From: Kingdonia uniflora
Lineage: Eukaryota; Streptophyta; Magnoliopsida; Ranunculales; Circaeasteraceae
Direction: 5' to 3'
Assembly (NCBI GenBank): GCA_014058105.1
Contig: JACGCM010002207.1
Coordinates: forward strand, 682,001-746,000
DNA length: 64,000 nt
Every line of letters begins with the position of its first letter. The first letter of the stretch is position 1. Shown here piece by piece: positions 30,864-31,208 of this stretch. The position numbers were made by a program, and so were the translations under genes. The notes under the pieces were generated by a model, which was given only the letters and a program-made list of their open reading frames with translations, was not told the DNA's origin and did no database searches.

Positions 30864-31160
30864 TTACAAACCCCTAACTGCAGCATCATCTTCTCTCTTC
30901 ACCAACTTCTTCGTGCAAGTCCACATAAAACTAACATGATCAGGAGGAGTCCAATATTGTAATTGACAACAAAACACAAAATCCTCCTCAGCGTCCTTGG
31001 CCTCTGCCTCGCTCATACCATCATAATCAGGTTCTACAGGATCCTCCAAGTGAACATCGACATTCCGCAGGAGTCCGATATACTTACCATATATTTCCCA
31101 ATACTTTGCTTGCACATGACTATATACATCCTTACGCGCCTGTGATCTCGTCTTCACCAT
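30864..31160 (-). CDS. Tat-B antisense cassette 1, intact 98-codon ORF (MVxTxS copy 3)
   Basis: The start is taken at 31160 (MVKTRSQARKDVYSHVQ) rather than at 31175, because the homologues at 2168 and 6344 also start MV-T-S and because the TATA box ends 41 bp upstream. Features in order are a basic N-terminus, KYWEIYGKYIGLLRN, an acidic stretch with PDYDGMSEAEAKDAEEDF, a Cys-rich FVFCCQLQYW, and a basic end KKLVKRED. It is the only uninterrupted copy of the family in the window. It is antisense to the retroelement and lies 1 kb upstream of the 3' LTR. I do not recognise a domain. The charge pattern could suit nucleic-acid or protein binding, but that is a guess. Confidence 0.6.
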   Translation of the reverse strand: MVKTRSQARKDVYSHVQAKYWEIYGKYIGLLRNVDVHLEDPVEPDYDGMSEAEAKDAEEDFVFCCQLQYWTPPDHVSFMWTCTKKLVKREDDAAVRGL

Positions 31161-31200
31161 TTCTTCAAACCACAATGACTCTTATTCAAACAACATGGGA

Positions 31201-31208
31201 TATTTATA
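31201..31208 (-). promoter_or_regulatory. TATA box of antisense cassette 1
   Basis: The minus strand reads GCTATAAATATCCC. The TATAAATA octamer sits 41 bp upstream of the MVKT start codon. Confidence 0.6.

What the first reader, a model, noticed from the sequence alone, without database searches (positions are those of the whole stretch)
30864..31208. Family of antisense ORFs starting MV-x-T-x-S with an exact TATAAATA box, in three Tat-type elements
Seen: minus-strand ORFs at 2168, 6344 and 31160 share a start (MVRTHS, MVTTRS, MVKTRSQAR) and a FEGL/FEGM/YDGM-acidic block about 45 residues later. Each has TATAAATA 40-63 bp upstream of the start codon, while the host elements (LTR G, LTR H, Tat-B) are clearly diverged. 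Known: extra antisense ORFs occur in the Tat lineage of plant Ty3/gypsy. Inference: these elements carry a separate antisense gene with its own Pol II promoter, kept through family divergence, so it probably helps the element. I do not recognise this protein.
Basis: partly seen in the sequence, partly recalled or inferred. Interest (0 to 1): 0.78.

Follow-up and report, generated by a model that had tools for sequence, protein, structure and literature searches.

The report
Small antisense genes in plant retrotransposons
Many copies of a plant jumping gene carry, on the strand opposite to their main genes, short protein-coding genes of unknown function with a promoter-like box in front, which an earlier survey that looked only at longer genes would have skipped.

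Summary
The ORF at 30864-31160 (minus) is real and looks coding. It lies antisense between pol and the 3' LTR of a Tat-clade, probably Retand, element. In its 1.0-Gb genome it has 7031 first-look candidates; the 150 scored all match at E<=6e-38. Over 66 fetched copies, variants shared between copies are poorer in amino-acid changes than private ones, among forward frames in this one only (p 7e-8); dN/dS is 0.28 against 0.99 in the adjacent gap (59 sequences). TATAAATA stands about 48 bp upstream in 39 of 66. The 6344 ORF is a homologue from a second family (profile E 1.8e-10), also with TATAAATA. A copy at 3389 was missed. The 2168 ORF is different: a second antisense ORF about 1.1 kb further along such elements, with its own TATAAATA; its kinship to 31160 rests on the shared start. 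No significant match in Pfam, the PDB or the protein database. Antisense ORFs of Retand elements are known, but the survey I read kept ORFs of 600 bp or more, or with TRP28. Promoter activity and function are inferred; no expression data were available.

The parts
30864..31160 (-). ORF-a: 98-aa antisense ORF with its TAA stop
   Evidence: high-copy, frame-specific constraint, stop codon without shared variants
31201..31208 (-). TATAAATA, begins 48 bp before the ATG
   Evidence: exact in 39 of 66 copies, at most 1 mismatch in 63 of 66
30126..30584 (-). ORF-b: second coding block of this element (MARCAPLG...), broken by stops in this copy
   Evidence: frame-0 constraint from about +576 to +1030; start recognised in 38 of 66 copies, none open to the end (longest 122 codons)
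30311..30318 (-). second conserved TATA-like box, inside the ORF-b frame
   Evidence: TATAWAWA at this column in 44 of 59 aligned sequences; CTATAAATAG between +700 and +1000 in 39 of 66 copies
29369..30133 (-). predicted intron: donor CAAG|GTTTGTAA, branch-like TACTAAC, acceptor TTTACAG|G
   Evidence: above my score thresholds, donor 49 of 59, acceptor 34 of 59, branch-like motif 37 of 59; splice matrix from memory; no RNA evidence
28759..29406 (-). TRP28-like larger antisense ORF; ATG at 29358
   Evidence: PF04195 E 0.098, below cut-off; coding constraint
20134..20634 (+). 5' LTR of the element
   Evidence: 88% identical to 32195-32687
32195..32687 (+). 3' LTR; polypurine-like tract GGGGCGAT just before it at 32187
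23445..25778 (+). pol pieces: RT 23445-23708, RNase H 24024-24245, RVT_3-like second RNase H 24603-24896, integrase 25440-25778
   Evidence: RVT_3 below cut-off (E 0.0058)
6045..6344 (-). H-type ORF1 copy (MVTTRS), TAA at codon 7 and a second in-frame stop
6407..6414 (-). TATAAATA of the 6344 ORF
3186..3389 (-). fourth copy, ORF1 of element G (MVKTRG), with in-frame stops
3458..3465 (-). TATAAATA of the 3389 ORF
1959..2168 (-). ORF2 of element G (MVRTHS), cut short near 1975, apparently by Copia sequence
   Evidence: listed genome matches outside the window end at residue 62-69 of 70
2208..2215 (-). TATAAATA of ORF2

Best explanation
Tat-clade (probably Retand) retrotransposons of this plant carry small, separate antisense genes between pol and the 3' LTR, ahead of the known TRP28-type antisense gene. 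The first (98-109 aa, MVxTRSQAR...FEGM or YDGM) sits 0.3-1.0 kb inside the 3' LTR and typically has TATAAATA beginning 42-92 bp before its ATG. H-type elements can carry a second (about 117 aa, MVRTxSERVR...FEGL) with its own box; A-type elements carry a different second coding block (MARCAPLG...). SHOWN: coding constraint (strongest for the 31160 type), high copy number, cross-family protein homology, box conservation. INFERRED: Pol II starts about 30 bp after the box and gives a short-leader antisense mRNA; the protein acts as an accessory factor for the element. My commitment on function (about 30%): a small nuclear or RNA-bound cofactor, basic at the N-terminus (median net charge +2 to +4 in the first 20 residues), that works with the TRP28-type protein to tune the element's transcription or silencing. 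Each copy need not make it, because protein from intact copies would serve all.
For:: the 150 scored copies all at E<=6e-38, 26 of 150 without stops in the matched stretch (my count of the listing, window copy included). (66 copies): frame-0 shared variants N82 S68 against singletons N141 S30, OR 0.26, p 7e-8; frames +1 and +2 not significant; gap +310..+535 none in any frame. (59 sequences, 58 of the same loci plus the window): sliding map gives the same start and end. (same 59): median dN/dS 0.28 (ORF-a), 0.40 (ORF-b), 0.35 (TRP28 part), 0.99 (gap), 0.61 (upstream). ORF-b and TRP28 were not in the query that chose the copies. A- and H-type homology E 1.8e-10, and 4.9e-6 without the start motif. 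Boxes: 39 of 66, 12 of the 16 H-type copies with a recognised start out of 20 fetched, 15 of 20 ORF2 copies.
Against: No RNA, CAGE or protein data. A-type copies were picked by amino-acid similarity, which lowers dN. H-type ORF1 showed no shared-against-private contrast (16 sequences, OR 0.89, p 0.37), nor did its part outside the query (9 copies, p 0.73; dN/dS 0.52 in frame, 0.55 in frame +1). In the part of ORF2 outside its query the contrast is marginal in frame (p 0.059) and stronger out of frame (p 0.0019). One of the frames antisense to ORF-a also gave p 0.0005. Some non-box 8-mers upstream are as conserved as TATAAATA (13 of 288 reach its count, itself included). No ORF-b copy was open to the end. 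Most listed 31160-type copies have stops. The AlphaFold model is poor (pLDDT 57.8).
Confidence: 0.72

Rival explanations
1. ORF-a is the first exon of the TRP28-type antisense gene, not a separate gene.
For: Same strand and order; splice-like signals lie between them: donor +1027, branch-like TACTAAC, acceptor +1792, 10 nt before the TRP28 ATG. Donor-like sites also lie inside ORF-a, for example +73 (best mean score, 29 of 59), +33 (47 of 59) and +3 (53 of 59).
Against: ORF-a keeps its TAA (no shared variants at the three sites) and is followed by about 260 bp without coding signal. By my reckoning none of the donors at +3, +21, +33, +73 and +142 has the phase that would continue into the TRP28 frame at +1792. 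Coding constraint continues to the end of ORF-a in frame. In the window copy ORF-b begins at an ATG shortly after in-frame stops.
Confidence: 0.15
2. The antisense RNA, not the protein, is what matters: a promoter that makes dsRNA or regulatory antisense transcripts, with an incidental ORF.
For: Box conservation; a review (PMC7264820, sections 7 and 8 read) raises dsRNA as a possible role of antisense transcripts in such elements.
Against: Frame-specific constraint and protein homology between families whose DNA did not match by blastn.
Confidence: 0.1
3. Apparent constraint is an artefact of choosing copies by protein similarity in a young, neutrally decaying family.
For: Selection of A-type copies was by amino-acid match; tests on regions outside the query in H-type ORF1 and ORF2 were weak.
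Against: ORF-b and the TRP28 part, outside the query, show the same pattern. A-H protein homology with no blastn DNA match is hard to get from sampling.
Confidence: 0.06

Closest known systems
Antisense ORFs of Retand elements with the TRP28 domain (PF04195), Vicient 2025, PMC11963269 (abstract, Results section 11 and Discussion read)
   Same: Same place (between pol and 3' LTR), same strand, a tandem repeat array after pol, a TRP28-like ORF further along.
   Different: That survey examined ORFs of 600 bp or more, or with TRP28. The ORFs here are about 297-360 bp, lack a TRP28 match, lie nearer the 3' LTR and have a TATA-like box in front.
gene23 of maize Grande, as described in the review PMC7264820 (abstract, first of three parts of the text, sections 7 and 8 read)
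   Same: Antisense gene between pol and 3' LTR; transcribed from a promoter upstream of gene23; product reported in the nucleus.
   Different: No sequence compared here; several small genes here instead of one named gene.
ORF3/ORF4 of Silene Retand (PMC7264820 gives ORF4 a transposase 28 domain; ORF3/4 of Retand-2 named in PMC11728184, passages only)
   Same: More than one additional ORF in a Retand element.
   Different: The original paper was not read; whether ORF3 is a relative could not be checked.

Membership tests
Tat clade of plant Ty3/gypsy | additional RNase H (aRH) besides the normal one (PMC6317226) | tested here: inconclusive
   RVT_3-type match between RNase H and integrase, E 0.0058, below Pfam cut-off; position fits Ogre/Retand as described in PMC6317226 passages
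Retand lineage | TRP28 (PF04195) in an antisense ORF between pol and 3' LTR | tested here: inconclusive
   PF04195 E 0.098 in the window; none of 6 stop-free pieces from other copies matched it at E<=0.1
Retand lineage | long pol-3'LTR region with antisense ORFs, often tandem repeats | tested here: met
   about 6.4 kb from integrase piece to 3' LTR with antisense coding blocks and a 61-bp array at 26221-26769
Retand lineage | RT phylogeny | not tested
   no reference RT set was fetched
TRP28 proteins | PF04195 in ORF-a, H-type ORF1 or ORF2 | tested here: not met
   no PF04195 match in the 16 members of A4, the 16 of A7 or the three window ORFs; H-type alignment A5 itself not scanned
One orthologous family of all three reported ORFs | homology beyond the MVxTRS start | tested here: not met
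   with the first eight columns removed: met for 31160 and 6344 types (score 35.8 against null maximum 18.1, 40 shuffles); weak for 2168 against 6344 types (22.2 against 18.3); not met for 2168 against 31160 types (26 of 40 shuffles as high)

The most novel reading that the evidence does not exclude
These elements are 'complex' retrotransposons: the antisense strand holds a row of two or three separately promoted accessory genes, arisen in part by duplication of one box-plus-small-gene unit, comparable in logic (not descent) to accessory genes of complex retroviruses, and kept under selection across element families.
Probability: 0.35. Interest if true: 0.75.

Novelty: new variant of a known kind. 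Interest (0 to 1): 0.57.

Why it matters
Why Retand elements keep a long antisense region is an open question. If that region holds several small separately promoted genes besides the TRP28 gene, a survey with a 600-bp cut-off has undercounted element genes. It also gives defined protein families, alignments and predicted start sites, so antisense transcription and function can be tested directly with RNA data.

Tried and rejected
Protein database searches: the single ORF gave no candidate sharing three words; A4 and A6 gave 1227 and 419 candidates, none at E<=0.1. How many plant proteins that database holds is unknown to me. Pfam and PDB: nothing significant (best PDB E 0.42). AlphaFold on three window sequences: pLDDT 57.8, not used. 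ORF-b as a duplicate of ORF-a (both end GGT TTG TAA in the window copy): no profile support. First-exon idea: see rivals. Papers searched (searches failed on characters): none describing these small ORFs was seen in the listings; Steinbauerova 2011 (an identifier recalled and not held) and the original Retand paper were not read.

An unbiased sample by non-coding flank was asked for and never answered.

Full report
WHAT IS THERE. The reported ORF is the minus-strand frame with ATG at 31160 and TAA at 30864-30866, 98 codons. It lies in an LTR element with LTRs at 20134-20634 and 32195-32687 (88% identical). RT, RNase H, an RVT_3-like second RNase H and integrase are on the plus strand at 23.4-25.8 kb, so minus-strand ORFs at 27-31 kb are antisense. 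A 61-bp tandem array follows pol. Layout and the weak PF04195 match of the 28759-29406 ORF point to the Retand lineage of the Tat clade, but those two Pfam matches are below cut-off and no RT tree was made.

THE REPORTED FAMILY. ATGs at 31160, 6344 and 2168 each have an exact TATAAATA beginning 48, 70 and 47 bp upstream. A scan of both strands for ATGGTN with TATAAAWA within about 95 bp upstream gave six hits: the three reported ATGs, a new copy at 3389, a codon inside that copy, and one on the plus strand (56607) unrelated by eye. tblastn inside the window links 31160, 6344 and 3389 (E 3e-5 to 1e-3), while blastn of the surrounding regions finds nothing better than E 0.19 between 31160 and 6344, outside the ORFs. 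The 6344 and 3389 copies carry in-frame stops. Polypurine-like tracts followed by LTR starts at 3715, 6687 and 32187 place the 3389, 6344 and 31160 ATGs 0.33, 0.34 and 1.03 kb inside a 3' LTR.

GENOME-WIDE. The window lies in an unnamed 1,003,380,622-base assembly. The 31160 ORF gave 7031 first-look candidates; the 150 scored lie at E<=6e-38 with 63-100% identity, 26 of 150 without stops in the matched stretch (my count). The 6344 type gave 10307 candidates and 150 scored, E<=1e-10; one place on contig C2146 is identical to the window copy over the 59-residue query. The 2168 type gave 12079 and 150 scored, E<=5e-19, the listed matches outside the window ending at residue 62-69 of 70. This fits truncation of the window copy near 1975, where a Copia gag-like reading (PF14223 at 913-1281; continued by eye to about 1975) abuts it.

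CODING TESTS, A-TYPE. I fetched 68 loci: 8 from the search, 20 listed as stop-free, and 40 with or without stops from upper and lower parts of the list; two duplicates were dropped, leaving 66. Three of the 66 lack ATG at the aligned start. Variants present in four or more copies were set against singletons. In frame 0: shared N82 S68, single N141 S30, OR 0.26, p 7e-8. Frames +1 and +2 gave p 0.40 and 0.68; one antisense frame, whose third position coincides with codon position 3 of ORF-a, gave p 0.0005 and is told as a caution. The stretch from +310 gave nothing in any forward frame. A sliding map of 59 sequences (window plus 58 of the loci) shows three coding blocks: 0 to about 290; about 576 to 1030 (ORF-b); and from about 1750 on (TRP28-like), with no signal at 300-560 and little at 1040-1740. 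Median pairwise dN/dS on the same 59: 0.28, 0.40, 0.35; gap 0.99; upstream stretch 0.61. The copies were chosen by similarity to ORF-a, which biases its own value down; ORF-b and the TRP28 part were not in the query. An ORF-b start was recognised in 38 of 66 copies and none of these is open to the end, the longest being 122 codons.

PROMOTER-LIKE BOX. TATAAATA is exact between -60 and -30 in 39 of 66 copies and within one mismatch in 63 of 66. Of the 288 8-mers starting from -300 to -13, the mean kept is 11.6 of 65 copies; TATAAATA is kept in 38, a count reached by 13 of the 288 (itself included). In 20 H-type copies a start was recognised in 16, of which 12 have an exact TATAAATA at -67 to -92. 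In 20 ORF2 copies 15 have it at -45 to -49. Of three H-type loci read further, L090 and L091 have ORF2 at +1044 and +1103 with TATAAATA at -39; in L089 an ORF2-like frame is broken early and has no exact box.

KINSHIP. A-type against H-type profiles: E 1.8e-10; with the first eight columns removed 4.9e-6 and score 35.8 against a maximum of 18.1 in 40 column shuffles. ORF2 against H-type: 1.7e-5, but 0.0032 and score 22.2 against 18.3 without the start. ORF2 against A-type: 9.9e-5, but nothing without the start (26 of 40 shuffles as high). So 31160 and 6344 are one family; 2168 is a second gene that may be an old duplicate.

WEAKER RESULTS. With variants in three or more copies counted as shared, H-type ORF1 gave no contrast in 16 sequences (OR 0.89, p 0.37), ORF2 did in 20 (OR 0.27, p 2e-6). 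dN/dS of intact copies: 0.30 (A, 23), 0.54 (H1, 10), 0.35 (H2, 3), 0.37 (ORF2, 19); shifted frames of A and ORF2 0.51-0.83. Split by what the query covered: ORF2 residues 1-67, 15 copies, dN/dS 0.32, contrast p 0.16; residues 71-117, outside the query, dN/dS 0.44 in frame (p 0.059) but 0.39 in frame +1 (p 0.0019), so the frame is not singled out there; after the stop dN and dS are 0.43 and 0.41. H1 ORF1 residues 67-97, outside the query, 9 copies: 0.52 in frame, 0.55 in frame +1, contrast p 0.73.

GENE MODEL. In A-type copies a donor at +1027 (49 of 59), a branch-like TACTAAC at 1755 (37) and an acceptor at +1792 (34) are conserved, the acceptor 10 nt before the TRP28-like ATG; a TATA-like box at +842 is in 44 of 59. 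This suggests a leader intron of the TRP28-type gene. Donor-like sites inside ORF-a are also widely kept (+3 in 53, +33 in 47, +73 in 29 of 59), so an exon role is not excluded, but ORF-a keeps its own stop. The splice matrix was approximate and from memory.

LITERATURE. PMC11963269 (abstract, section 11 in both parts, Discussion read) reports antisense ORFs in all representative Retand elements of its 63 clusters, examining ORFs of 600 bp or more or with TRP28. PMC7264820 (abstract, first of three parts, sections 7-8 read) reports an antisense promoter upstream of gene23 in maize Grande. PMC6317226 and PMC11728184 were seen as passages only. I saw no description of these small ORFs in the listings.

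VERDICT. A real, high-copy family of small antisense genes with a conserved TATA-like box, with good evidence of coding for the 31160 type and weaker direct evidence for the others; two kinds of gene rather than one; function and promoter activity inferred.

Noticed in passing
30126-30584, minus: ORF-b (MARCAPLGEIWEYKENDVQYLC... in related copies), a second antisense coding block in A-type copies with no profile match to the other ORFs.
   Followed up: partly
29369-30133, minus: Conserved donor, branch-like motif and acceptor that suggest an intron in the leader of the TRP28-like antisense gene.
   Followed up: partly
30854-30872 and 30116-30134, minus: ORF-a and ORF-b both end GGT TTG TAA followed by a TGTGATGAT stretch, in the same phase; unexplained.
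   Followed up: partly
49467-49724, minus: A piece resembling the TRP28-like ORF of the 20-32 kb element by eye; no Pfam match.
   Followed up: no
10201-10792 / 18799-19388; 42346-43020 / 46512-47206; 36990-37289 / 40655-40954: Three more direct-repeat pairs that look like LTR pairs.
   Followed up: no
913-1810, plus: Copia-type gag (PF14223) with a weak zinc-knuckle match; its reading continues by eye to about 1975, where it abuts the 2168 ORF.
   Followed up: partly
G000:C2146:2347-2523: A place identical at the protein level to the 59-residue piece of the window's 6344 copy; possibly a duplicated or alternative contig.
   Followed up: no
upstream of 31160, about -165, -127 and -102: GTATAGTT occurs twice and GGTTGATTGA once; 8-mers from these are kept in as many copies as TATAAATA or more and may be regulatory.
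   Followed up: no
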